From the IMG/VR virus record IMGVR_UViG_3300023174_000098, positions 39,613-103,612 of that record: a DNA stretch of 64,000 nt. One strand, 5' to 3'. Origin of the DNA: a virus. Shown here piece by piece: positions 2,269-43,467 of this stretch (position 1 is the stretch's first letter; each line of letters begins with the position of its first letter). Made by a program: the position numbers and the translations under genes. Below the pieces are notes generated by a model that did no database searches, was not told the DNA's origin, and saw only the letters and a list, made by a program, of their open reading frames with translations.

Positions 2269-3576
2269 ATGGTAGAATTTGAATTTCTTACTGGACTATC
2301 CAAGATAAAGAATCAAAATGTCTTTTATCTGAGATTTTCACCTCAAATTCTTGATTTTACTGATAAAAACTTTAATTTCACAATAGAGATATTTGCCCAA
2401 GGTCTTAAAGTATCAACTTTGGTAACAAGGGATAATTTTAAAGAGATACACAGTTTACTTAAACAAATTTTATTTTTAAAAGATAAAAAAATATTATGTT
2501 GGAATTTTAAGAACTATTGTTCCTACTATAAAAACAATACTGATAGGAATTTCAATTCTGACTGCAAGATATTAGATTTAAAGGTATTGGGTGGAATATG
2601 TGGTCTAAATACCAAAACTGTCCCTAACACCTTCGTGGAGGCTGTAAATGCATTTAAAACCATAAAGGAGATTGATTATGAAAGAATATATGAATTATAT
2701 GAGAAGATACACCTTCCTTTGATCAAGAAGGTGATACCTAAAATTGAGACCAAGGGCATTGTTAATAAAAAAGAAAGAAAAATAGAATATTGCTATTACG
2801 ATGTAGAGGGCCAAGATAATGGTAGATTATCAAGTAGTTGTCAATTTAATAATTGTTTTTTACCATTAAATTTGAAAAAAGATGATAAAGAAAATTTTAA
2901 GACGATGGATGAAGATTATTTATTTTTAAATTTTGATTATAAAAACATGGAAGTTTCTGTTTTGGAATTTCTTACAAAAGATTCTGGTTTGAGAGATGTC
3001 TTAGAAAGCGGCAATGATTTTTATGAATCTTTATATGAAAGACTATTTGGTAAAACATGCACTCCTGATAAGAGAAATAAAATCAAAAAGATTTTCCTTC
3101 CTTATGTTTACGGGGCTAGCCCACAAGCTTTAGCGACAAATTGTGAGATTTCATTATCTTCTATTGAAGGGTTTATAAAAAATATAAGGAAGATATTTTC
3201 TCATACATTTGATTGGCTGGACAGCTACTCAGAAAATTCTGGAAGTAATATTTATACCAATATATTCGGTAAAAAAAGAATTATAAATGAAAAATATAAA
3301 TCTAGAAATTTTATTGTTCAATCTACTGCAAGTATATTCTGTCTAGATAAATTAATAGATCTTTCTAATTATTTTAAAGATCCTAATATATTGTTTTATG
3401 TTCATGATAGTTATTTGTTCTCTTGTAATAAAAAAGAACTTGACTCTACGGCGGAAATAATTAAAAATATACTTTTAGAAGATGGAAGATTTTTTGAAAA
3501 CATAGTCATAAATGTGAGTTGTGAATATGGAGATAATCTTAACAATCTAAAAAAATATACTGGAGTTTTAACGTGA
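2269..3576 (+). CDS. DNA polymerase, family A (short)
   Basis: Template-directed DNA polymerase with the three family A palm and finger motifs in order: motif A (FDYKNMEV, Asp near residue 223), motif B (RNKIKKIFLPYVYGAS, with Lys and Tyr-Gly) and motif C (YVHDSYLF, His379-Asp380). At 435 residues it is shorter than Pol I or T7 polymerase. The first 140 residues resemble a reduced 3'-5' exonuclease domain, but the catalytic Asp-x-Glu is not visible, so proofreading is doubtful. A TTG lies directly before the ATG; I chose the ATG. The next gene starts within its stop codon. A separate family C polymerase is encoded at 36552-43060. Confidence 0.88.
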   Translation: MVEFEFLTGLSKIKNQNVFYLRFSPQILDFTDKNFNFTIEIFAQGLKVSTLVTRDNFKEIHSLLKQILFLKDKKILCWNFKNYCSYYKNNTDRNFNSDCKILDLKVLGGICGLNTKTVPNTFVEAVNAFKTIKEIDYERIYELYEKIHLPLIKKVIPKIETKGIVNKKERKIEYCYYDVEGQDNGRLSSSCQFNNCFLPLNLKKDDKENFKTMDEDYLFLNFDYKNMEVSVLEFLTKDSGLRDVLESGNDFYESLYERLFGKTCTPDKRNKIKKIFLPYVYGASPQALATNCEISLSSIEGFIKNIRKIFSHTFDWLDSYSENSGSNIYTNIFGKKRIINEKYKSRNFIVQSTASIFCLDKLIDLSNYFKDPNILFYVHDSYLFSCNKKELDSTAEIIKNILLEDGRFFENIVINVSCEYGDNLNNLKKYTGVLT

Positions 3577-7832: not shown

Positions 7833-8437
7833 AATATTTGGACAATATAGAAAAAGATATATCTAAGGGAATAATAACCTCAAAAGTTTTGACCAGTAGA
7901 TTTAAATTTTTAAATGAAAATGATAAAAAATCTATTATTTATAACGATCCTTTTTATATACCTTTTTTTTATCACTTGGGAAAACATATAAATCCCACCT
8001 GTTTCTTTGAAATGGGATTCGATTTAAGCCTCATCAGTAGTTGTTTTTTAAAGTCTTGTAAGTCTGTCGAGTATTTCCTTGCACTCCAACAGAAAACAAA
8101 AGATTCATACAATGAAAAGTTGGCAATTAGTAATTTAAAAACAAATTATAAAAAGGAATTCAATTATTATTGTGGAAATTTTTTTGATCAAGAATTTTTA
8201 GATTATTTTGATAAAAAAGATTTTGATTTAATTATTGTAAATGCTCAAGGCGGTTACGATGATCTTTTTTCTGCAGTAGAATATGCTTATATGAGATTAA
8301 AAAATAAGGGACACCTTGTTTTTAATAATTTGAGCGCCAATAAAAATAAAGAAATATTTTTAAATATTGCAATTGGCTACAAAAAAGAATATAAAGTACT
8401 TGGCACAAAATACTCTGTTGGAATTTTGGAGAAATAA
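7829..8437 (+). CDS. class I methyltransferase-like protein
   Basis: A 202-residue protein with a Rossmann-type pattern. FFEMGFDLSLIS is in the place of the SAM-binding glycine loop, and FDLIIVNAQGGYDDLFSAVEYAYMRLKNKGHLVF matches motifs IV-VI of small O-methyltransferases. The usual Gly-x-Gly and acidic residues are altered, so binding of S-adenosylmethionine is uncertain. It follows the sugar acetyltransferase gene with a four-base overlap, which suggests a shared glycan-decoration task. A non-catalytic relative is the alternative. Confidence 0.5.
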   Translation: MKYLDNIEKDISKGIITSKVLTSRFKFLNENDKKSIIYNDPFYIPFFYHLGKHINPTCFFEMGFDLSLISSCFLKSCKSVEYFLALQQKTKDSYNEKLAISNLKTNYKKEFNYYCGNFFDQEFLDYFDKKDFDLIIVNAQGGYDDLFSAVEYAYMRLKNKGHLVFNNLSANKNKEIFLNIAIGYKKEYKVLGTKYSVGILEK

Positions 8438-33051: not shown

Positions 33052-35115
33052 CTAATTAGAATGAGATATTGCCCTGGATAATTCAGTTAGGATAACGTCC
33101 TCAGATTCTGTTAATATTTTATTACTATTTAATGTATTTGAGGTATTAGTTGGTGTCTTTGTTAATGTTGGTGTCTTTGTTAATGTTGGTGTCTTTGTTA
33201 GTGTCTTTGTTAATGTTGGCGTCTTTGTTAGTGTCTTTGTTAATGTTGGCGTCTTTGTTGGTGTCTTTGTTAAAGTGTGAGTCGGAGTCCCAGTCACTGT
33301 AGGTGTGCATGTTGCCGTTCTGGTTATTGTGGGTGTCTTTGTTTTTGTTGGAGTATTAGTTAAAGTTTTGGTTAGTGTTAGTGTTGGAGTATTTGAATTT
33401 GTGGCCGTTTGAGTATTGGTTAATGTAGGAGTTTTTGTTAATGTAGGAGTTTTTGTTAATGTAGGAGCTGGAGTTTTGGTTATTGTGGGTGTGCATGTTG
33501 ACGTTCTGGTTATTGTCGGAGTCTTTGTTTTTGTTGGAGTATTAGTTAAAGTTTTGGTTATAGTTCTAGTTAGCGTTGGAGTTCTAGTTAGCGTTGGAGT
33601 TCTAGTTAGCGTTGGAGTATTTGAATTTGTAGCTGTTTGAGTATTGGTTAATGTAGGAGTTCTTGTTAAAGTTGGTGTTTTTGTTAGTGTAGGAGTTTTT
33701 GTTAGTGTAGGAGTTTGCGTGGGTGTTCGAGTATATGTCTTTGTTAGAGTAGGTGTTCTGGTATTTGTTGGAGTAACACTTTTTGTTGGAGTTGGAGTTC
33801 TTGTTACACAAACACTAGAACCATCGCCGCTACTGCTGGCACAAATTGGATTTGGAACGATGTTGCTTTGAGTGGAATATTCCCAATAACCAGCAACACT
33901 AGATTTGTAGAATGCGGCCTTATACCACTCATCTTCAGATGGAATATAATACATAGAATTCGGATTTTTATCTATTTCGAAAAATATTTCTGATCCGTTT
34001 AAATTATATGCCCCCGACTCAGTCTCTGTTGTCGATGGATGTGATACGCTATTATGAAGCCAATTAGCCATCCTAGCAGCACTCAACCAGCTAACAAAAT
34101 TAACTGGTTTGTTGCCCATTTTTGGTTTTACTAAATATGTGTATCTTCCTGATACACCAGATATTTGTATTCCTCCTGCTGGATCTTCGGACATTGAATA
34201 GTTGTATAAATTATATGGATCCGATTTTGCTACAATATTAAGAAACGCACAATATTCAGTGTTTGTCACAGGGTATTTTTGTATCAAGTAGTTGTATCCC
34301 ACGCTTCCGAAGGAATACTCGCTATCTGGTAAGTTTCCAGGATTGCCTACTCTAATAAATTTACTATAATTTAAAGGATTTTCTATTGAAGATAATCTAA
34401 AGCCTATTGTTTTATCTTTGAAATTAAATTCGAATCTGTTTCCCTTCCATAAATCATTAGAAGAAAAAGATCCTCCACGTATAATTTTTTTACTATTACT
34501 TCCATCTGTTAATTCCCATACATTTCCATTCATGTCATAGGTGCCATATGCACTTGGTCCTCCATTAGTGCCAACAGAAGTTGGCCCTCCATCATTTCCC
34601 ATTTCTCCCCAATAAGCATTTTTTTTATAATTTGCACTGTTGCCCGCAACTGATGTTGCAGTAGGAGTTGATGTTTTTGTTGGTGTTAACGTTTTTGTTT
34701 TTGTGGGTGTAGCAGTCAGGGTGGGAGTTGTTGTATTAGTAGATGTTAATGTTGGTGTTAATGTTGGTGTTTTTGTAAGTGTTGGTGTTGAGGTTGGAGC
34801 TATATATTCCAAAACCAGGGTTCCTATCCATCCCGCATCACAGGCGGATACTGCGTTCCACGAATCATTTTCCCACACATAATGATTATGGTTATAGCAC
34901 TGACCTGAAGCATTATTTTTATTAAATTTGTCATACTGGGAGGAGCTCTGAGGTACATACCCAGACCCAGACTCTATGGATTTTATGTAAGCCAGGTTTC
35001 TCTGATCCCAAGCTAATGTGTATGGTGCACCATATCTCAATCCAATGCTTATGGCATCATTTATTATTGTAATTGTTGGGTCTTTTGCGTATTTTTCTAG
35101 TTCTTCGTTTGGCAT
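33052..35115 (-). CDS. adhesin: permuted FGE-type domain with Thr-Pro linkers
   Basis: 687 residues. An N-terminal domain (1-105) is followed by a TPTLT linker. A formylglycine-generating-enzyme (SUMF1) fold comes next in swapped order: the normally C-terminal part first ([18 protein letters not shown]... RGGSFSS... IGFRLSS, about 178-250), then the N-terminal part ([24 protein letters not shown]... [17 protein letters not shown]... [15 protein letters not shown], about 270-420). A Thr-Pro repeat of about 220 residues with PTLTKT units follows, then a short C-terminal helix. Probably a fibre or surface adhesin. A TATATA box lies 6-11 bases before the ATG and no ribosome site is seen. Confidence 0.75.
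33124..33800 (-). repeat. Thr-Pro-linker coding repeat
   Basis: An imperfect array of 6-, 18- and 24-base units encoding TPTLTK-type peptides in the adhesin. Larger blocks are duplicated: the segment with [14 protein letters not shown] occurs twice. Confidence 0.9.
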
Positions 35116-35120
35116 AAAAA

Positions 35121-35126
35121 TATATA
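35121..35126 (-). promoter_or_regulatory. TATATA box close to the adhesin start
   Basis: TATATA at -11 to -6 from the ATG at 35115, with only T between. The transcript would be nearly leaderless if this is a -10 element. Confidence 0.35.
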
Positions 35127-35185
35127 GTTAAAATGTTTTAGTTAATTATAGATGTCATCTGCCAACACAATTTTCAATGTAAAGG

Positions 35186-36439
35186 TTATAGTTGCACAAC
35201 ATCCACGCCAGAGTTTCCGTTTGCTATGTATATTTTATTTGAAACAGCATCTTCCACAAAAGAGCTGCACCCGCCGGATAAGTTTTCAATTGATGCAAAT
35301 GTTTGATTTTTTGTGTTCATTGTAAATAAAGCAGACGACTTGTACGAATCTGCTAGATAAATCTTATTTTTTAAAGAATTTATGCTAAAGTTTATTACAT
35401 TTATTTGTTCCGAGTTTTGATTATATGGAATTGTTATTCTATAATCTAATATTGAATTGGTATTTGTATTTAATAGTAAAAATTCATTAAAACCCAAATC
35501 TTTAGTTGGAATGTATATTAAGTTAGAAGATAAGTCTATTTCCATCGACTCTGATTTTCCCCCCTTGGGAAGATAAACAGTACTCTCTAGAGTCATATAT
35601 CGTAAGTCAATGACCAATATAGATTCACTGCTGGCATCTAATACATATGCTTTATTATTATTCTTGTTGATTAATAATTTAACGAATCGGTCTATTGAGT
35701 ATTCACTCAATATTATTGAGTTGACCACTTCTCCATTTCTTATTTTTTTCAATGAATTTTCTTTACGGCTAGTCGCCAATACATAAATTGATCCATCGTT
35801 TATTTGAATATCCATTGGATAAACATTTATATTTGTTATTTTTTCGATATCCCCATTAGATTTTGATAATTGTATAATTTGATTATTTGCAGTATCAGAG
35901 ACATATAAGCTGTTGGCATCTCCTACCATTTTCCATATGTTTGCTGGTGATGTTATATTATAATTAGAAACTATTTGATTATTTATTGTGTTTACAACTT
36001 TGATACTAAATCCAGTCGAAGCATATAATCTATTTTTATTTTTATCGAAAACTAAATTCTTCACTCCTGGTATGTTTATTCTTGGTTTTGTAGGCGTAGC
36101 TGTGGGCGTCGGAGTCATTGTCGGAGTAGGAGTGATTGTTGGTTTTGGTGACACAAAAACAGTCACCTCATCACTCGCCAGAACTGTTAATCCAGTAGAA
36201 TATGAACCAGAGGTTAATATTACTCTATATTTGTGTCTGTTCATTGCCAATGAAGCAACAAAACTTATTATGTTTGAATCTACTCCCACATTTTTCCAAA
36301 CATCTGGTTCTGTGGATTTTTGCCATTGATATGAGATTGCTGCCCCCGATTCTGTTATTGCCTGAACAACAAAACCTGTCTGTTTCTCATCTATTGCGTG
36401 CAAGTCTTTTGGCTGTAAAATAATCGTTATTGAATCCAT
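35186..36439 (-). CDS. Ig-like / beta-propeller virion protein
   Basis: 417 residues. The N-terminal 95 residues look like an Ig-type domain (ISYQWQKSTEPDVWKNV... KYRVILTSGSYSTGL). A short TPTPTMTPTPTATPT linker follows, then a beta-propeller (about 125-417) of repeated blades such as NKLYVSD/NQIIQL, SIYVLATS, KAYVLDASSESILVIDL, NLIYIPT and KIYIANG, as in YVTN/NHL propellers. Likely a surface-binding tail or capsid-decoration protein. TATATA lies 7-12 bases before the start and no Shine-Dalgarno is seen. It is upstream of the permuted FGE adhesin on the same strand. Confidence 0.7.
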   Translation of the reverse strand: MDSITIILQPKDLHAIDEKQTGFVVQAITESGAAISYQWQKSTEPDVWKNVGVDSNIISFVASLAMNRHKYRVILTSGSYSTGLTVLASDEVTVFVSPKPTITPTPTMTPTPTATPTKPRINIPGVKNLVFDKNKNRLYASTGFSIKVVNTINNQIVSNYNITSPANIWKMVGDANSLYVSDTANNQIIQLSKSNGDIEKITNINVYPMDIQINDGSIYVLATSRKENSLKKIRNGEVVNSIILSEYSIDRFVKLLINKNNNKAYVLDASSESILVIDLRYMTLESTVYLPKGGKSESMEIDLSSNLIYIPTKDLGFNEFLLLNTNTNSILDYRITIPYNQNSEQINVINFSINSLKNKIYLADSYKSSALFTMNTKNQTFASIENLSGGCSSFVEDAVSNKIYIANGNSGVDVVQL

Positions 36440-36551: not shown

Positions 36552-37940
36552 ATGAGCGATAAAATAGTCGAAATTGTTGGATTTGAACATTTACACCTTC
36601 ACACCGATTATAGTCTCCTTGATGGTTTTCAAACTGTAGAAGAGGCTGGAAATCGTGCCATTGAAATCAATCAAAAGTTTCTAACGGTATCTGACCACGG
36701 TATGCTGGGAGCAGTCCCAAGACAAATCAAAATATGTGATAAAATATGTGATAAATACAAAGATAAAAATAAGTTGAGTCCCATATTCGCCAGCGAACTA
36801 TATATCAATTCACTACAACCAGAGAGTTCTGGTTTGGAGGATATGCAAAATTTCACCAAAGACCTATCCCCAGATGAAATCGATACTCTAAAAGCCAGTC
36901 CTCACCTATTAGCAATAGCTTACAGCCTAGAGGGTTATAAGAATCTTGTAAGATTAACTAGCTGGGGTTGGACCAAGGGCTTCTACAGAAAACCTCGGGT
37001 TAATTATGAACAGCTCAAGAAGCACAAAGAAGGCTTAATATTTACAAGCTGCTGCTACAATAGCGAAATTGGAAGAGCCTTTGATAAAGGTGGAGAAGAA
37101 TCTGGCTTTCAAATGCTTGAAAAGCATCTAGAAATGTTTGGTAAAGATCATTTCTATTTGGAGCTCATGCTTTTAGATTTTAAAAAGCAGTTTGCATATG
37201 ATGCTTTTATTGTAAAATGTCATGAAAAATATAAGATTCCTTTGATAGTATCTTGCGATGTTCATTATTGTAATAAAGAAGATAGTCACTATCAACGCTT
37301 GATGTTGATGATCCAAACTAATAGAACATTAAAGCAGATAGAAGAAGCAAAACAAAAAGATAGTATGGCAGACTTCTTCGAGCTTCAAGATGAAAATCTA
37401 TGGATGAAAAGTGAAGAAGAGCTTAATGAGAAATGGCTAAAGGACTATAGTGAAATTATTCCTTATGAATTATTCCAAGAAGCTAAAAAAAATACAGTCA
37501 GAATATGCGAGAAGGCAAAAGGGGTTACATTTGATAGAAGCCTTAAACTTCCTGTAATAGAAGATGGTGATGAAAAATTAAAAGAACTAACCATAAGAGG
37601 TTTCAATGATAGAAACCTCCCTAAAACAAAAGTCTATTTAGACAGATTAAAAGAAGAAATTTCTCTAATCAAAAGAAAAGGTTTCAGTAGCTATTTCCTC
37701 ATTCAGAAGATGATGACAGACGAAGCCAGAAGAATATGCCCTCAATTACTTGGTTGGGGAGATGGAAGTGAAGCCGTTGGTCCCGGCCGTGGAAGCGCTT
37801 GTGGTTCTCTTCTCTGCTATTGCTTGGGCATAACAGACGTGGATCCAATCAAAGAAGATCTTTTATTCTCCAGATTTTTAAGTGAATCTCGAGGAGGAAG
37901 AAGTATGATTTTAGAGTTTAAAGATATCGATCCTATTTAA
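36552..37940 (+). CDS. dnaE: DNA polymerase III alpha, N-terminal part of split gene
   Basis: 462 residues. A PHP domain starts at HLHLHTDYSLLDGF (about 14-27) with further His/Asp motifs (SDHGMLG, SCDVHYC). The palm begins with the glycine-rich VGPGRGSACGSLLCYCLGITDVDPIKEDLLFSRFL (about 409-444). The protein then ends with a short unrelated tail exactly where the catalytic PDIDxD motif should follow. It therefore has the proofreading-like and Gly-loop parts but no catalytic aspartates; those are in the gene at 40433. Both parts are needed for a family C polymerase. Confidence 0.9.
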   Translation: MSDKIVEIVGFEHLHLHTDYSLLDGFQTVEEAGNRAIEINQKFLTVSDHGMLGAVPRQIKICDKICDKYKDKNKLSPIFASELYINSLQPESSGLEDMQNFTKDLSPDEIDTLKASPHLLAIAYSLEGYKNLVRLTSWGWTKGFYRKPRVNYEQLKKHKEGLIFTSCCYNSEIGRAFDKGGEESGFQMLEKHLEMFGKDHFYLELMLLDFKKQFAYDAFIVKCHEKYKIPLIVSCDVHYCNKEDSHYQRLMLMIQTNRTLKQIEEAKQKDSMADFFELQDENLWMKSEEELNEKWLKDYSEIIPYELFQEAKKNTVRICEKAKGVTFDRSLKLPVIEDGDEKLKELTIRGFNDRNLPKTKVYLDRLKEEISLIKRKGFSSYFLIQKMMTDEARRICPQLLGWGDGSEAVGPGRGSACGSLLCYCLGITDVDPIKEDLLFSRFLSESRGGRSMILEFKDIDPI

Positions 37941-37953
37941 TAAAGGTTTTATT

Positions 37954-38067
37954 ATGTTCTATGAACTTGCTGTTGCTTTTGGTGTAGAATATGCCTTGCT
38001 TGTCAACAGTCTACCAAAAGATTTGATCATAACGGTAGAATACAAAAAAAATAACACCCCTGTTTGA
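37954..38067 (+). CDS. small ORF after dnaE-N
   Basis: 37 residues (MFYELAVAFGVEYALLVNS...), 13 bases after the dnaE-N stop, with an AAAGG ribosome site. The stop lies in the loop of the terminator. It may be a true peptide or residue of the gene split. Confidence 0.4.
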   Translation: MFYELAVAFGVEYALLVNSLPKDLIITVEYKKNNTPV

Positions 38068-38090
38068 CCAAGGGTGTTATTTTTATATTT
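38050..38090. terminator. bidirectional terminator at the dnaE break
   Basis: AATAACACCC and GGGTGTTATT form a perfect 10-bp stem with a 12-base loop. T-rich stretches follow on both strands (A-run on the left, TTTTATATTTTT on the right), fitting the convergent genes on either side. Confidence 0.85.
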
Positions 38091-38103
38091 TTATATTGAA
38101 GAT

Positions 38104-39057
38104 TTAGCGATTGTATTTACCAAATTTTCCAAAATAGTCTTCATCTTCATCTGACTCTTCTTCATCTCCGCCATAATCTTCATCTGAGTCTTCATAGCTA
38201 TCTGAATCTTCATCCTCATCTTCTGATTCTTCGTCTTCTGATTCACCTTCCTCAGAATCTTCATAATCTTCCTCTGAATCATCGGACTCTTCTGAATCCG
38301 AATCTTCTGAGTCATCATAATTATCTGAATCTTCGTAATCATCTGAGTCATCTTCTTCTTCGGAGTCTTCTGAGTCATCACTGATATACTCTTCTCCATC
38401 CTCTGAATCTTCCGAATCCTCTGAATCATCACTATATTCTTCATCATCGCCCTCCATCTCGTCAGAAGCATCTTCTGAATCGACTTCATCTTCTGATTCT
38501 GGTTCACCGTCGTATAGTTTTTCGAAACCAATAGGGCCAGCAACACTTTCATAGAGGTTTTTGTCTTTAAGCATTTCAACGAGAACCGCCTCTGATAGTT
38601 TGGATCTCTTTATTTCTCTTACAACGTTCTCAATAAGTTTTGGATTATTTTTCATTGCAGATACTGCAACTGCAAGTAGATCCTGGACACTTTTAATCTT
38701 GCTATAATCTATTTCGACATTTTTTTCTTCATGAATATTTTTTGCAAATTCAGATAAGGACATTCCTTTTGTTTTATGTATCCACTCCGATACCTTTGAT
38801 ACTTGGCTTGTTGGCCCAACTTTTGTTGGTTTGCTTGGTTTTGGAAGATTTGGGCCATCTTCTTTTTCTTTGTGCCATTCTGGCGACTTATTTTGTAGAG
38901 GTTCTGTTTTTGGTTCATAGACTAATTTTTTGTTTCCATGATGTCCAAGAGCATTCTTGTTTTTCTTTGCCTTTATTTTTTTACTGGTCATCTTTGGTGG
39001 ATTTTCTTCCACTTTACCCTTTTCATTTAAATACTCATTAAACTTTTTGAATGCCAT
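38104..39057 (-). CDS. acidic virion-type protein with capsid-targeting N-terminus
   Basis: 317 residues. MAFKKFNEYLNEKG carries the shared targeting pattern with a possible processing site after LNE12. A basic region follows (about 15-70), then a helical middle (VQDLLAVAVSAMKNNPKLIENVVREIKR), and a 120-residue Asp/Glu/Ser tail (from about 190) of SEDSEDSEE type. It resembles the acidic protein at 14487 in architecture but not in sequence. I chose the third codon as start because GGGAG stands six bases before it. It lies on the opposite strand between the two dnaE parts. Confidence 0.65.
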   Translation of the reverse strand: MAFKKFNEYLNEKGKVEENPPKMTSKKIKAKKNKNALGHHGNKKLVYEPKTEPLQNKSPEWHKEKEDGPNLPKPSKPTKVGPTSQVSKVSEWIHKTKGMSLSEFAKNIHEEKNVEIDYSKIKSVQDLLAVAVSAMKNNPKLIENVVREIKRSKLSEAVLVEMLKDKNLYESVAGPIGFEKLYDGEPESEDEVDSEDASDEMEGDDEEYSDDSEDSEDSEDGEEYISDDSEDSEEEDDSDDYEDSDNYDDSEDSDSEESDDSEEDYEDSEEGESEDEESEDEDEDSDSYEDSDEDYGGDEEESDEDEDYFGKFGKYNR

Positions 39058-39059
39058 GA

Positions 39060-39233
39060 TCATCTCCCTTTTCTAAGTTGCATTAAAATCCACATTATGA
39101 TATAAATTAGTGGTCCTATCCCAAAAAATAAAAAAGAAGCAACAAATCCAATACGTATCCAATTTGGATTTATATCTGTTTTGTCACCCAAGTCAGCACA
39201 GACTCCCAGTAGGACTGATTTGTTCTTTTTCAT
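39060..39233 (-). CDS. PspC-domain membrane peptide
   Basis: 57 residues. The pattern GVCADLGDKTDINPNWIRIGFVASFLFFGIGPLIYIIMWILM is that of the PspC domain, with a first amphipathic helix and one membrane segment (about 28-51). In bacteria PspC senses envelope stress and binds PspA. A phage copy could modulate the membrane stress response during infection; that is inference. It overlaps the start of the acidic gene (ATGATCATG), so the two are coupled. Confidence 0.7.
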   Translation of the reverse strand: MKKNKSVLLGVCADLGDKTDINPNWIRIGFVASFLFFGIGPLIYIIMWILMQLRKGR

Positions 39234-39278
39234 ATAATTTATTTATGCACAACTAGTTATATTATTCTTGGAAAAACG

Positions 39279-40373
39279 TCAAAAACACATCTCTTTGTAT
39301 CTAATATGTTTTCTTTCCAAGTAAACGGTTGCGTTATCATACAAGTAGTCACCTGCTTTTTTAGCCTGCCGCCTTCCTCCTATTGAAAAACTATAGTTGT
39401 TTTTGTCATCTTTGTGTCTTTTTTGAAGTTTTGCTTGCTTGCCCAATATTTCTTGACATTTGAGTAAAAACTCTTTTGTCCCACACAGGGCGAAGGCATA
39501 GAAATTATTGTTTTTTTTAAATGATCCATCGCCATCAAAATATCCTCGCATGAAATGATTTTGTAATTCTTTTGGCACAATTGATTCATCTGGAAACTTT
39601 AATATCAATGTCTTTTTTTCAAAAGCGCCTTTAGCCACTAAATTATCGAATAATTGATCTGAACTCATTAGTAGTCGGCAATACTCTATTTCTACTCCTC
39701 CAAAAGACTTGGATTTATATATATTTATTGGATATGTAGAATTAATATGTTTTTTGAATGTTTCTAAATGATTGATATCTTTTGTGCTTAAGGCTATTCC
39801 AAGTTTTTTTTCTGTTTTTGTTTTTTTACTAACGTATCCATCGGCATAAATAAAACCCAACCAATATGCTTTATATTCATTGTCTATTTTGTTAAAAAAA
39901 TCATGATCAACATCATACCTCCTAGAATTTATTTTGTTGCTACGAGTAAGCCCTCTTTTTTTAAGGTTATTTGTCAGCTTGCCAATTCCTATTCCTGTTA
40001 TTTCAATTACCTTTATCGATGACAAACCAGATTTATATAAATTTATTGATTTTTCTAACAAGGGATCGTATTTAACTATTTTCTTTTTTGATATTTTTAA
40101 TCTTTTTATTTCTTGTCTAAGTGTATGTTTTGAAACTTTTGTCAATTTGTTAACTTCATTTAAACTTTTACCATTTTCATAAAGATTTAACGCTTCTTCT
40201 AAACTTTCTTTTGTATAACTTTTACGTGCTGCTTCCTTGGCGCTTCTTGTTAAACCCAATTTTCTAAGTTGGTATTGTAGTCCTTGAAAAGAAGCCCCAG
40301 TCGCCGCTGCCGATTTTTCTATTGTCTTTCCTTCTTTATAGATAATAATTGCTTTTTGTATTGATTCTTTCAT
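39279..40373 (-). CDS. free-standing LAGLIDADG homing endonuclease
   Basis: 364 residues. The N-terminal third has three helix-turn-helix-like repeats (GKTIEKSAAATGASFQGLQYQL; GKSLNEVNKLTKVSKHTLRQEI; GLSSIKVIEITGIGIGKLTNNL). The nuclease core follows, with two LAGLIDADG helices: AYWLGFIYADGYVS (about 185-198) and HFMRGYFDGDGSFKK (about 273-287). Both Asp residues are present, so it should be active. It sits between the two halves of dnaE in reverse orientation, the arrangement expected for an endonuclease that targets one of the flanking coding sequences. Confidence 0.88.
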   Translation of the reverse strand: MKESIQKAIIIYKEGKTIEKSAAATGASFQGLQYQLRKLGLTRSAKEAARKSYTKESLEEALNLYENGKSLNEVNKLTKVSKHTLRQEIKRLKISKKKIVKYDPLLEKSINLYKSGLSSIKVIEITGIGIGKLTNNLKKRGLTRSNKINSRRYDVDHDFFNKIDNEYKAYWLGFIYADGYVSKKTKTEKKLGIALSTKDINHLETFKKHINSTYPINIYKSKSFGGVEIEYCRLLMSSDQLFDNLVAKGAFEKKTLILKFPDESIVPKELQNHFMRGYFDGDGSFKKNNNFYAFALCGTKEFLLKCQEILGKQAKLQKRHKDDKNNYSFSIGGRRQAKKAGDYLYDNATVYLERKHIRYKEMCF

Positions 40374-40432
40374 ATGTGTCCTTGTTTTTATTAAATAATC
40401 TATGTATAATATAGTTTAAATAAAAATATTTT

Positions 40433-43060
40433 ATGAAATCAAATATATTTAAAATTTGTGAAGAAAAATTAAAAGAAAAAGGATTATTTGAGGATAAAAG
40501 ATATCAAAAAAGATTGAGCTGGGAACTCAAAGAAATAGAAGTTCAAGATAAAGAAAATTATTTTTTAGATCTATCAGTAAGAAAAGTAACATATCCTGAA
40601 AATCAAAATAATCTTTTGGTTCCATATCTTTTGGATATAGTTAAAGATTTCGACATAGATCGAGATCCTGAATTTTTCTATGGTGACCTACCAGATTGTG
40701 ATGTAGACTACATTCCTGTAGTGCGTGAATTTTTAAAGAACGAATGGGCTTCCAAAACATTTGGCGAGCAATATGTTTGTAATATTGGTAATTATACAAC
40801 ATATGGTATTAAATCATCATTGATAGATATGGCTAGAGTTCATGATAAAGATAGAGGAGAATTACTTGCTTTAACCACTAAACTTCAAACCAAGGATGAT
40901 GAAGGCAAAGCTTTGACTTGGGAGTCGGCAATGAAAGTTGATCCTGGTCTTAAAAAATATTGTGATGATAATCCTGATGTTGCAAAAGCCGCACAGAAGT
41001 TAATTGATCGAAATAGAGGCATGGGAGTTCACGCCGGTGGACTTATAATCAGTAGCATACCATTAACCGATCTTGTTCCTCTTGTTAAAAGGAAAGATGA
41101 TCCTCAAGCAAGTGCTTGGGTAGAAGGTCTTCACGGTCAAGACCTACAGCCGGTGGGTCTTGTTAAATTCGATTTGTTGGTTATTAGCAATCTTTTACAA
41201 ATAGCTCACTGTTGCAGGCTTGTGCATGAGCGACATGGTGTAGAAAAAATATGTGCTCTTCATGGCAAATCAAATTGGACCGATGTGGACTGCTATAGGA
41301 ATGATGAAAAAGCATTGATAATGGCAGATGAAGGAGATCTTAAATGTATCTTTCAGTTTGATTCAGATGGAATTAGAAATCTTGCTAGATCTGGTGGTGT
41401 TACAAGATTTGAGGATTTGGTCGCATACTCGGCTTTATACAGGCCTGGTCCGTTAAATATGAAGATGCACGAGAGATATATTGAGAGAAAAAGAGGCCGA
41501 GAGGAATATGAGCTTCATCCCATATTAGATTCTATTTTAGAGAAAACTTATGGAGTTATTGTTTACCAAGAACAAGTAATGAAGATTCTCAATGTGGTTG
41601 GTGATATTCCAATGCGAGATGTCGAGACTGTCCGAAAAGCCATAAGTAAGAAAAAAGTAGAACAATTCATAAAATACAAAGAAATATTTATAAAGAATGG
41701 AAGTAAAAACCTTGATCAGACAGAAGAAGAATTAGAAAATTTGTGGAATCTTATAGAATCTTTCGCTGAGTACGGCTTCAATGCTAGTCATGCCACCGCC
41801 TACACCCACGTTAGTTCTCGTCTTCTTTATTTAAAATCACACTATCCACAAGAGTTTTATACTGCTATTTTGATGTGTGAAGACAATACCGATAAAATCA
41901 AAGAGTATAGAAAAGAAATAATAAAGCACAATATAAAGATCAATAAGATTGATGTAAATAAATCTAAAGCAAATTTTAGCCTTGTTGATGATGAGATATA
42001 TTTTGGATTTTCTAATGTAAAAGGTATAGGAATAAATGTTGCTGAGCAGATAGTTGAAAAGCAACCTTATATCAATTTTGAAGATTTTATAGATAGATTC
42101 GGTACAGATTCTAGTGTCTTGAAACCTCTGGTGGCAACCGGTTGTTTCAAGGACTCTGATCCTGTTACGCTTTTTAAGTTTGCCGAGTCTTATAAAGATT
42201 ACATAAAAAAGAAAATTGATAGAAAGAAAAGACATCAGGCCTCTAGCAAAAAGAATAAAGAAGTATTAATGGATTTGATAGAAAAGGCCGAGAATTCCGA
42301 CGAGACTGTCGCTCGTCTCTCTAAAGGTGAAATTAGTCAAATAGATTCTAAAGATCTTAAAAAAGTAAGTAATTGCGAAATATGGAAAGAAAGATATAAG
42401 GGTTTAAAAATAGATGACAAAGATTTGTGGAAAGAAGTTTGCAAGCTAATAAACAAGATGACCAAGGCCACAGAAAAATTTAAGCTTAAAGATAATCAAG
42501 ATAAGCCAAAATTAGAGTCCTTTGACTCATCCCTAATAAGCATAGATAAAAAACTAGAAAAAGAACTTCTTGAATCTCTTCCCGAATGTGAGAAAAGGTA
42601 TTATGGATTTTCTTGGCAATCAAAAATCCAGGCAAGCCCTGATTATAAAGGCGGATATACCTTTGACTCCTTCACAGAGGGTGTTAATGAAATTTTGCCT
42701 GTAGAAGTCGAAATCATGGCCGTTAATAAAAGAAAAGGCAAAAGGGCAGAATATTATCAGGTAAAAGCCGAGGATGAAAATGGCGATGAAGGAATCATTA
42801 ATGTTTGGAAAGATGATTATAATTCTTTTCAAAAAGAGATAGTTGTTGGTAATTTTGTAAGATTGAGATTGAATGCGCCATCGAATGGTTTTAAAACGTA
42901 CACACTCTCTTCAATTGGACCAAGGAATTTTTATAAAAAGAAGCAAGTTGAAAGAGAAGATGACTACAGACTTGTCTTGTTAAGAAAATCTGATGGGATA
43001 TTGGACGAAGTTACCATTGAACAAGAAAAGGAAATAGAAAAATGTCAGACGAACTCGTAA
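40433..43060 (+). CDS. dnaE: DNA polymerase III alpha, C-terminal part of split gene
   Basis: 875 residues. It opens with about 85 residues that echo the region before the catalytic motif (RLSWELKEIEVQDKENYFL), then the catalytic LPDCDVDY (about 86-93), the third Asp in LVKFDLL (about 247), YRPGPLNMK, YQEQVM and YGFNASHATAYTHVSSRLLYLKSHYP. A helix-hairpin-helix (FSNVKGIGINVAEQI) and an OB-type domain (VEIMAVNKRKGKRAEYYQVK) follow near the C-terminus. With the 36552 product it makes a complete family C core. Its ATG has no clear Shine-Dalgarno, and an ATAATATAG stretch lies about 20 bases upstream. Confidence 0.92.
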   Translation: MKSNIFKICEEKLKEKGLFEDKRYQKRLSWELKEIEVQDKENYFLDLSVRKVTYPENQNNLLVPYLLDIVKDFDIDRDPEFFYGDLPDCDVDYIPVVREFLKNEWASKTFGEQYVCNIGNYTTYGIKSSLIDMARVHDKDRGELLALTTKLQTKDDEGKALTWESAMKVDPGLKKYCDDNPDVAKAAQKLIDRNRGMGVHAGGLIISSIPLTDLVPLVKRKDDPQASAWVEGLHGQDLQPVGLVKFDLLVISNLLQIAHCCRLVHERHGVEKICALHGKSNWTDVDCYRNDEKALIMADEGDLKCIFQFDSDGIRNLARSGGVTRFEDLVAYSALYRPGPLNMKMHERYIERKRGREEYELHPILDSILEKTYGVIVYQEQVMKILNVVGDIPMRDVETVRKAISKKKVEQFIKYKEIFIKNGSKNLDQTEEELENLWNLIESFAEYGFNASHATAYTHVSSRLLYLKSHYPQEFYTAILMCEDNTDKIKEYRKEIIKHNIKINKIDVNKSKANFSLVDDEIYFGFSNVKGIGINVAEQIVEKQPYINFEDFIDRFGTDSSVLKPLVATGCFKDSDPVTLFKFAESYKDYIKKKIDRKKRHQASSKKNKEVLMDLIEKAENSDETVARLSKGEISQIDSKDLKKVSNCEIWKERYKGLKIDDKDLWKEVCKLINKMTKATEKFKLKDNQDKPKLESFDSSLISIDKKLEKELLESLPECEKRYYGFSWQSKIQASPDYKGGYTFDSFTEGVNEILPVEVEIMAVNKRKGKRAEYYQVKAEDENGDEGIINVWKDDYNSFQKEIVVGNFVRLRLNAPSNGFKTYTLSSIGPRNFYKKKQVEREDDYRLVLLRKSDGILDEVTIEQEKEIEKCQTNS

Positions 43061-43467
43061 TTGATGAAACAAATTTTTTTCAATATTTTAAAGAAATTAA
43101 AAATAGTAAACCTGAGAAAAATGATATATTAGCAAGATATAGATCCAAGGCTCTTCTTGTTGATGGTTTAATGAAAAGAGATTTAATGAATTTACTAATG
43201 CATAACGACTCAAGGTCAGCATTAAAAGTAATGCAGAAGTTGGGAGGAGCGGTAGAAGAGGATGCCATTAGAGTTTTAAAAGACATATCTACTGATTTAT
43301 TGAACGGGCTCAGCCCAGAGGAAGTTGAGAAGAAAGAATATGAGTATATTTATGAAGCATTTTATTTTACCAAGCCCGAGTACTTCCCTGAAAACGATCC
43401 CCACTGGACAGCAATCTCAATTAAAAACAATTTTTTAGAAAAAAAAGAAGATTCGAATACTATATAA
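43042..43467 (+). CDS. hypothetical protein
   Basis: 141 residues, overlapping the end of dnaE-C by 19 bases. Helical and acidic, with an N-terminal NFFQYFKEI segment and a central ALKVMQKLGGAVEEDAIRVLKDI. Co-transcribed with the polymerase and possibly an accessory subunit; that is inference. Not recognised. Confidence 0.65.
   Translation: MSDELVIDETNFFQYFKEIKNSKPEKNDILARYRSKALLVDGLMKRDLMNLLMHNDSRSALKVMQKLGGAVEEDAIRVLKDISTDLLNGLSPEEVEKKEYEYIYEAFYFTKPEYFPENDPHWTAISIKNNFLEKKEDSNTI

What the first reader, a model, noticed from the sequence alone, without database searches (positions are those of the whole stretch)
36552..43060. dnaE split around a LAGLIDADG homing-endonuclease block
The first polypeptide stops just after the Gly-rich palm loop; the catalytic PDCDVD starts the second. 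Between them, on the other strand, are a homing endonuclease, a PspC-like gene and an acidic head-type gene, bounded by a bidirectional terminator. Split polymerase and reductase genes next to homing endonucleases are known from T4-like phages, but splitting a family C polymerase inside the palm is unusual.
Basis: partly seen in the sequence, partly recalled or inferred. Interest (0 to 1): 0.75.

Follow-up and report, generated by a model that had tools for sequence, protein, structure and literature searches.

The report
Two-piece phage DNA polymerase, anciently split
This large phage makes its bacterial-type replicative DNA polymerase as two separate proteins that must come together to form the active site; the break is old and shared by a wide phage lineage, and the selfish endonuclease gene now sitting in the gap arrived later and did not cause it.

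Summary
Alpha-N (36552-37940) carries PHP and the palm up to the residue before the catalytic motif, with the GPGRGS loop. Alpha-C (40433-43060) carries PDCDVD, fingers and HhH. Together they cover DnaE with no residue lost. Alpha-C's first ~84 residues are a degenerate second copy of the palm front, without the GS loop. All 53 related split contigs with both halves break at the same place; only three relatives are intact. The acidic gene in the gap is there in 52 of 53; in the intact relatives it lies (with a tmRNA and an AAA gene) just upstream of whole dnaE. So alpha-C keeps the ancestral position and alpha-N was copied upstream, followed by reciprocal loss. The homing endonuclease is in only 3 of 53 gaps (the window and two near-copies). 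Eleven other large split records hold no second dnaE. No intein or intron joins the halves here, so assembly in trans is most likely. Split family C polymerases are known in other phages, so this is a new variant. In passing: relatives carry split inteins, group I introns and hairpin-plus-stop elements resembling T4 gene 60 bypassing in the same gene.

The parts
36552..37940 (+). alpha-N subunit: PHP domain plus front of the palm, 462 aa
   Evidence: Pfam PHP and DNA_pol3_alpha 2-98/260; NCBIfam DnaE profiles
37779..37796 (+). GPGRGS nucleotide-binding loop (residues 410-415)
   Evidence: R413, G414 and S415 near-invariant in about 90 contigs
38047..38084 (.). bidirectional intrinsic terminator, 16-bp stem, between alpha-N and the convergent acidic gene
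38104..39063 (-). acidic protein gene, 319 aa; ancient resident of the gap
   Evidence: homolog in 52 of 53 split gaps; upstream of dnaE in all 3 intact relatives
39060..39233 (-). PspC-domain small protein, 57 aa
   Evidence: PF04024 E 2.5e-16; homologs in a minority of relatives' gaps
39279..40373 (-). LAGLIDADG homing endonuclease, 364 aa; late arrival
   Evidence: PF14528, phrog_4645; same place only in two near-identical relatives, 79% identical
40433..43060 (+). alpha-C subunit, 875 aa: palm with catalytic Asp, fingers, HhH; an OB-type region is suggested only by weak structural hits
   Evidence: Pfam DNA_pol3_alpha 100-259, finger, HHH_6; 43-46% identical to intact relatives; OB-type hits E about 0.02
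40433..40684 (+). degenerate second copy of the palm front (residues 1-84), GS loop missing
   Evidence: hhalign E 1.8e-7 to N tails, 7.6e-17 to intact DnaE (column-shuffled controls at best 0.04); NCBIfam overlaps
40691..40708 (+). catalytic motif PDCDVD (residues 87-92)
   Evidence: P87, D88, D90 and D92 in all 66 contigs that cover it
41171..41173 (+). third catalytic Asp, D247 (VKFD)
   Evidence: D in all 62 contigs that cover it; role from the Taq alignment and established knowledge
43042..43467 (+). downstream neighbour of alpha-C, start overlaps its end
   Evidence: conserved after alpha-C in most split relatives

Best explanation
The two genes encode two obligate subunits of one family C (DnaE-type) replicative polymerase. 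Alpha-N brings PHP and the GS loop; alpha-C brings the three catalytic aspartates, fingers, HhH and the C-terminal part. They assemble non-covalently, so that the palm active site is completed in trans. Origin: in an ancestor with gene order acidic(-), tmRNA, AAA ATPase, dnaE, the 5' part of dnaE was duplicated to a place upstream of the acidic gene. The new copy kept PHP and GS and ended before the catalytic motif. The resident copy lost PHP and its GS loop but kept a remnant of the palm front. Homing endonuclease, PspC and other genes entered the gap later. Shown: the split, its fixation, the second palm-front copy, the gene order, the absence of a second dnaE in the records searched. Inferred: the duplication step, non-covalent assembly and activity.
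For: Same break in all 53 split contigs with both halves. Active-site residues kept on both sides. The C extension is a palm-front copy by profile-profile comparison and by three independent bacterial DnaE profiles, where N runs to position 328/335/378 and C restarts at 235/246/285. Acidic gene in the gap in 52 of 53, upstream of whole dnaE in intact relatives; AAA and tmRNA belong to the same block. One origin of the split fits the tree (likelihood 2.8 higher when all split rows are held together, p-AU 0.607). Eleven other large split records (189-527 kb) have no second family C polymerase, nor has the own record; no family B polymerase in the 12 records tested. Synonymous change far exceeds amino-acid change in alpha-C and its extension (dN 0.17 vs dS 1.39; 0.22 vs 0.88), and alpha-N has dN 0.08 with saturated dS. 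AlphaFold gives low confidence for the palm parts of each half alone, as expected if they need each other, though alignments were shallow.
Against: No biochemistry. Intact relatives fall inside the split group in the free tree with weak support, so re-fusion is not excluded. All records are fragments or of unknown completeness. A family A polymerase is also present, so the split enzyme need not be the only replicase. Both halves keep a palm-front copy, and it is unclear how the two copies share one fold.
Confidence: 0.76

Rival explanations
1. The homing endonuclease (with its neighbours) inserted into an intact dnaE and split it, as with mobE in phage Aeh1 nrdA.
For: The endonuclease gene lies next to the start of alpha-C. 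Precedents: Aeh1 nrdA/mobE and gp43 of Aeromonas phage 25 (PMC2988022).
Against: Endonuclease in 3 of 53 gaps only; acidic gene, not endonuclease, is constant; overlap of about 90 residues between the halves; gene order shows N on the far side of an old gene block.
Confidence: 0.04
2. The halves are rejoined by protein trans-splicing or RNA trans-splicing, so the mature polymerase is one chain.
For: Relatives do carry split and whole inteins in the same gene and a group I intron.
Against: No intein N- or C-terminal motif in either window half, no Rfam intron at gathering or permissive thresholds. The end of N and the start of C are of constant type in all split relatives, with no intein there. 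Splicing would leave the N tail and the 84-residue second palm copy in the product.
Confidence: 0.05
3. Two independent proteins: alpha-C is a PHP-less polymerase working alone, and alpha-N is a separate PHP nuclease or regulator.
For: Phage polymerases without a recognisable PHP match (phrog_11165 type; hits such as Wifcevirus and SSU5) exist. Alpha-C kept a palm-front remnant.
Against: Those polymerases match the GS-loop part of alpha-N, whereas alpha-C lacks that loop in all 21 relatives examined, and alpha-N keeps an intact GS loop in nearly all contigs, which has no evident use outside a polymerase active site.
Confidence: 0.1
4. The split is older than the whole group and the three intact genes are re-fusions made by recombination between the two palm-front copies.
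For: In the free tree intact rows nest within split ones with SH-aLRT 81-87.
Against: Holding the split rows as one clade scores better; the intact gene order needs N to move back precisely across the acidic-tmRNA-AAA block.
Confidence: 0.12

Closest known systems
Split minimal Pol III alpha of group 2.2 jumbo phages (Iyer et al. 2021, PMC7824862)
   Same: Family C polymerase divided between the NTP-binding part and the Mg-binding/template-binding part, in separate genes
   Different: That version is minimal, lacks the other Pol III domains and accompanies a family B polymerase. Here all domains are kept, C has a second palm-front copy, and no family B polymerase was found
Multi-ORF DnaE of isolated phages: Microbacterium phage Cybele, Gordonia phage LilyPad, Staphylococcus Sextaecvirus
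   Same: Family C polymerase in two or more adjacent ORFs
   Different: In Cybele and LilyPad the break is between PHP and palm (GS and PDxD together); in Sextaecvirus it falls after the first two Asp. None of those examined breaks between GS and PDxD
Homing-endonuclease-associated split genes of T4-like phages (nrdA/mobE in Aeh1; gp43A/B in Aeromonas phage 25; PMC2988022)
   Same: Essential replication enzyme in two polypeptides with an endonuclease gene between; the halves are reported to work or to co-purify
   Different: Here the endonuclease is a late passenger; the split is older and involved duplication
Split DnaE of cyanobacteria and 'fractured genes' with split inteins (PMC3919608; Dassa et al. 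2009 from memory)
   Same: DnaE in two genes; relatives of this window do carry split inteins in dnaE
   Different: No intein at this break; other position (palm)
Gene fission by duplication and complementary partial degeneration (monkey-king genes of Drosophila, from memory)
   Same: Two partial copies, each having lost what the other kept
   Different: Here the halves must jointly form one active site

Membership tests
Family C DNA polymerase (Pol III alpha, DnaE type) | PHP domain, GS loop, three catalytic Asp, finger domain, HhH | tested here: met
   All present across the two proteins
Family C DNA polymerase (Pol III alpha, DnaE type) | Polymerase activity of the assembled halves | not testable with these tools
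   Needs expression and assay
Split-intein fractured gene | N-intein after first half and C-intein before second half | tested here: not met
   No TIGR01445/TIGR01443 or Pfam intein match in the window proteins; positive controls are the N-intein matches in L008 and L006
Gene split by homing-endonuclease insertion | Endonuclease at the break wherever the gene is split | tested here: not met
   3 of 53 split gaps
Minimal split Pol III alpha of group 2.2 jumbo phages | Only core catalytic domains, accompanied by family B polymerase | tested here: not met
   PHP, fingers and HhH present; no PF00136 in 12 records
Minimal split Pol III alpha of group 2.2 jumbo phages | Break between NTP-binding and Mg-binding parts | tested here: met
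   GS in N, PDxD in C; paper description PMC7824862
Gene fission by duplication and reciprocal degeneration | Overlapping homologous segment retained in both halves | tested here: met
   Palm-front copy in C
Gene fission by duplication and reciprocal degeneration | Unsplit ancestor outside the split clade | tested here: inconclusive
   Compatible (p-AU 0.607) but not shown
T4 gene 60-type bypassing element (relatives only, not the window) | Stop codon right after the take-off codon and a 5' stem-loop | tested here: met
   Class i elements:
T4 gene 60-type bypassing element (relatives only, not the window) | Landing codon matching the take-off codon | tested here: inconclusive
   Exact CTT/CTT in one class iv contig, synonymous Leu codons in the other two; only two of three bases (NAY for CAY) in 11 of 14 distinct class i gaps
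T4 gene 60-type bypassing element (relatives only, not the window) | Single fused protein made from the interrupted gene | not testable with these tools
   Needs reporter assay or peptide data

The most novel reading that the evidence does not exclude
The lineage's dnaE has been broken again and again by selfish DNA and kept alive by different repairs. The fixed break is healed by assembly in trans, with a GS-less second palm front as scaffold. Further breaks in relatives are healed by split and whole inteins and group I introns. At about codon 17-23 of alpha-N they are healed by a new family of ribosome-bypassing elements (stop codon, short gap and covarying upstream hairpin) that travel with an adjacent HNH endonuclease. 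Dozens of natural variants of a T4 gene 60-like event would then exist in one replicase gene.
Probability: 0.45. Interest if true: 0.82.

Novelty: new variant of a known kind. Interest (0 to 1): 0.58.

Why it matters
A replicative polymerase whose nucleotide-binding loop and metal-binding aspartates sit on different polypeptides is a natural two-part enzyme. It allows tests of what the palm front does and of how a fission survives: both halves still carry a palm front, one functional and one a remnant. It also corrects a tempting inference, that an endonuclease found in a gap made the gap. The same gene in relatives concentrates inteins, introns and probable bypassing elements, which makes it a good place to study how essential phage genes survive selfish DNA.

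Tried and rejected
Endonuclease-made split: rejected by distribution and gene order. Intein at this break: no motif. Intron or other RNA in the gap: Rfam negative at gathering threshold, only weak sub-threshold hits, three of them over the terminator stem. Second dnaE: none in own record or in other large records. Small plus-strand ORF after alpha-N (37955-38067): the frame I translated was off by one, so its conservation was not tested properly; not pursued. AlphaFold on each half: palm regions of low confidence, so the models could not show which palm-front copy fills the canonical place; the fold search gave DnaE for both. A two-chain prediction was not possible with the tool. Hairpin element elsewhere: the class ii pattern was found in 8 contigs, 7 of them known dnaE contigs and one (L215) not examined. 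Simple programmed +1 or -1 frameshifting for the class i elements: rejected as sole explanation because gap lengths of 5, 6, 7 and 8 nt need different frames.
Full report
What is there. The window lies in a 103,612-base virus record (window = 39613-103612). The ORF at 36552-37940 (462 aa) carries a PHP domain and positions 2-98 of the 260-position Pfam model DNA_pol3_alpha. The ORF at 40433-43060 (875 aa) carries positions 100-259, the finger domain and HHH_6. Against Taq Pol III alpha the last N segment (361-448) ends at Taq 459, and C starts matching at residue 85 = Taq 460. So the two proteins tile one DnaE without loss, and the break lies between the GPGRGS loop (residues 410-415 of N) and the catalytic motif (PDCDVD, residues 87-92 of C). 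Between them on the other strand lie an acidic protein (38104-39063), a PspC protein (39060-39233) and a LAGLIDADG_3 endonuclease (39279-40373). A terminator at 38047-38084 has T tracts on both sides.

A second palm front. C has about 84 residues before its catalytic motif that an ordinary cut would not leave. A profile of 21 such extensions matches the tail of the N proteins (hhalign E 1.8e-7) and intact relatives (7.6e-17). Sixty column-shuffled controls gave at best E 0.04. Three bacterial DnaE models agree independently: N reaches model positions 328, 335 and 378, while C restarts at 235, 246 and 285. The extension has lost the GPGRGS loop in all 21 sequences but keeps near-constant residues of its own (R27, E31, Y43, N57, N60). 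The catalytic aspartates (D88, D90, D247) are invariant in the 62-66 contigs covering them, and R413, G414 and S415 of the N loop nearly so in about 90. Nine PHP positions aligned with the usual metal-ligand pattern are also kept (the ligand assignment rests on the motif pattern, not on a structure).

How old and how general. Searches of IMG/VR with each half and with alignments of relatives gave 103 sequences including the window and the published 595-kb record LR756511. Many are near-copies, so counts are not independent. In 56 contigs both halves were found; three of these are intact single ORFs (LR756511 and two IMG/VR contigs) and 53 are split. Where the ends could be read, N ends just after RFxSEARGG and C starts about 85-90 residues before PDxD. 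Gap lengths run from 1.0 to 13.8 kb, and in one contig the C half is inverted. Eleven split records of 189-527 kb were searched for any family C polymerase: ten hold one N-type and one C-type match and one (340 kb) only the C half. The own record holds the two halves. No family B polymerase was found in the 12 records searched, but a family A polymerase is present in 11 of 12.

Who lives in the gap. An iterated profile of the acidic protein, with its acidic tail cut off, finds a homolog in 52 of 53 split gaps. In all three intact contigs the same gene lies on the minus strand just upstream of the whole dnaE. In the intact contigs the order is YeaH-like and SpoVR-like genes, acidic(-), tmRNA(+), AAA ATPase(+), dnaE (the names YeaH-like, SpoVR-like and AAA are my reading of the sequences, not a database call). 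In split contigs homologs of the upstream pair lie upstream of alpha-N (65-71 contigs), and acidic, tmRNA and AAA lie between alpha-N and alpha-C (AAA in 21 gaps, tmRNA in about a dozen). Alpha-C therefore sits at the ancestral place and alpha-N on the far side of an old gene block. The window's endonuclease is in the gap only in the window and two near-identical contigs (79% identical).

Origin and mechanism. The simplest history is a partial duplication that placed the 5' part of dnaE upstream of the acidic gene, with loss of everything after the palm front in the new copy, and of PHP and the GS loop in the resident copy. A tree of the catalytic part puts the three intact genes together. The free search nests them weakly inside split ones, but a tree with all split rows as one clade scores 2.8 log units better, p-AU 0.607. 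One fission is thus compatible but not proved, and re-fusion remains a rival. Because each half alone lacks an essential part of the active site, I infer that they assemble in trans. No intein motif or intron was found at this break. Between window and nearest relative, dN is far below dS in C and its extension (0.17 vs 1.39; 0.22 vs 0.88), and dN in N is 0.08 with saturated dS. AlphaFold models of the halves have low confidence in the palm parts (N 410-415 and 440-462; C 193-250 and others). That fits mutual dependence but is weak evidence with alignments of 10-13 sequences.

What is known. Iyer et al. 2021 (PMC7824862) described in group 2.2 jumbo phages a minimal Pol III alpha split into NTP-binding and Mg-binding proteins, without the other domains and beside a family B polymerase. 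GenBank phages also have multi-ORF DnaE: Cybele and LilyPad are split between PHP and palm, and Staphylococcus Sextaecvirus after the first two aspartates. Endonuclease-associated splits of nrdA and gp43 in T4-like phages are reviewed in PMC2988022. The present case is a full-length, duplicated-palm-front version fixed in a large lineage: a new variant of a known kind. I found no paper describing it, but only open-access text could be searched, and the original paper on the huge-phage genomes was not read.

Seen on the way. In relatives (not in the window) dnaE carries more breaks. L008 and L009 have a split intein after LYRPGPLN in alpha-C, with an endonuclease-like ORF between the parts; L006 has one near residue 450. 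Whole inteins lie in L031, L055 and L067. Group I introns lie in the first codons (Rfam RF00028 in L049). Most striking, 38 of 91 scored contigs have a short non-coding insert within the 15 bases after the HLHLH codons of alpha-N: a stop codon followed by 2-5 further bases and a landing codon (class i), a 40-47-nt GC hairpin (class ii), or a TAA between leucine codons (class iv). Class i and ii alleles have a strong hairpin in the 45 nt before the insert (mean -21.7 and -16.0 kcal/mol, against -5.4 for 35 distinct uninterrupted alleles, ranges not overlapping). In class i it covaries: 99% of cells paired and four pairs changed on both sides, against 56% paired in uninterrupted alleles. The codon before resumption is NAY after a CAY take-off in 11 of 14 distinct class i gaps (gaps are related by descent, so the binomial p printed there overstates it). 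Interrupted alleles more often have an HNH-type endonuclease ORF directly upstream of dnaE (19 of 40 versus 3 of 46, again not independent). This resembles T4 gene 60, where a stop codon follows the take-off codon and a 5' stem-loop stimulates bypassing (PMC5009743), and its association with mobA (PMC2988022). It is inference from sequence and needs a reporter assay.

Noticed in passing
L014, L019, L025, L028, L031, L033, L044, L048 and others, first 25 codons of the dnaE N gene (L014 about 7940-8010): Class i: stop codon directly after HLHLH, then 2-5 nt plus a mostly NAY codon, preceded by a covarying 12-bp hairpin; gap lengths 5-8 nt, so no single frameshift explains them. Probable ribosome bypassing.
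   Followed up: partly
L024, L032, L052, L006 and others, same site of dnaE N: Class ii: 40-47 nt GC-rich hairpin insert after HTD, reminiscent of T4 gene 60; the class ii pattern was found in 8 viral contigs, 7 of them known dnaE contigs.
   Followed up: partly
contigs 3300010885_060015 (L042), 3300032305_003086 (L041), 3300023179_009306 (L036): Class iv: TAA between leucine codons (CTT-TAA-CTT in one, CTC-TAA-CTT and CTT-TAA-CTA in the others) with a small upstream hairpin: stop-hop or readthrough candidate. L230 (3300010885_080919) has two elements in tandem.
   Followed up: partly
L049 7797-8022; also contigs 3300020195_001430, 3300006750_000005, 3300023179_000009: Group I intron (confirmed by Rfam in L049 only) within the first codons of dnaE N, at nearly the same site as the hairpin elements.
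   Followed up: partly
L008 11919-15974, L025 13561-17338, L006 7935-12175: Split inteins in the C half of dnaE, in L008 with a TnsA/DUF7487-like ORF between the parts; whole inteins with LAGLIDADG in L031, L055 and L067. In some phages the enzyme would be built from three genes.
   Followed up: partly
L007 6269-7078 and homologs directly upstream of dnaE N in about 22 other contigs: HNH-type endonuclease ORF just upstream of dnaE, enriched beside interrupted alleles (19 of 40 versus 3 of 46), like T4 mobA beside gene 60.
   Followed up: partly
L002 6729-7081, L005 4540-4896, L007 1669-2023 and about a dozen split gaps: Phage-encoded tmRNA genes in a conserved block acidic-tmRNA-AAA beside dnaE; none found in the window.
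   Followed up: partly
L025 3181-7600: Phage-encoded Cas12i effector (1080 aa, PADLOC 1584 bits) with a 13-repeat CRISPR array directly upstream of dnaE.
   Followed up: partly
window about 2761-3540 (G000 42373-43152): Small family A DNA polymerase (about 438 aa frame) in the same record and in ten of eleven other large records searched.
   Followed up: no
window 33052-36439; L067 15319-16713: Two minus-strand genes directly upstream of alpha-N: one with long Thr-Pro repeats and an FGE-sulfatase domain, one with a short Thr-Pro stretch. A relative's locus (L067) has Gly-Asn-Gln repeat genes instead, downstream of N.
   Followed up: no
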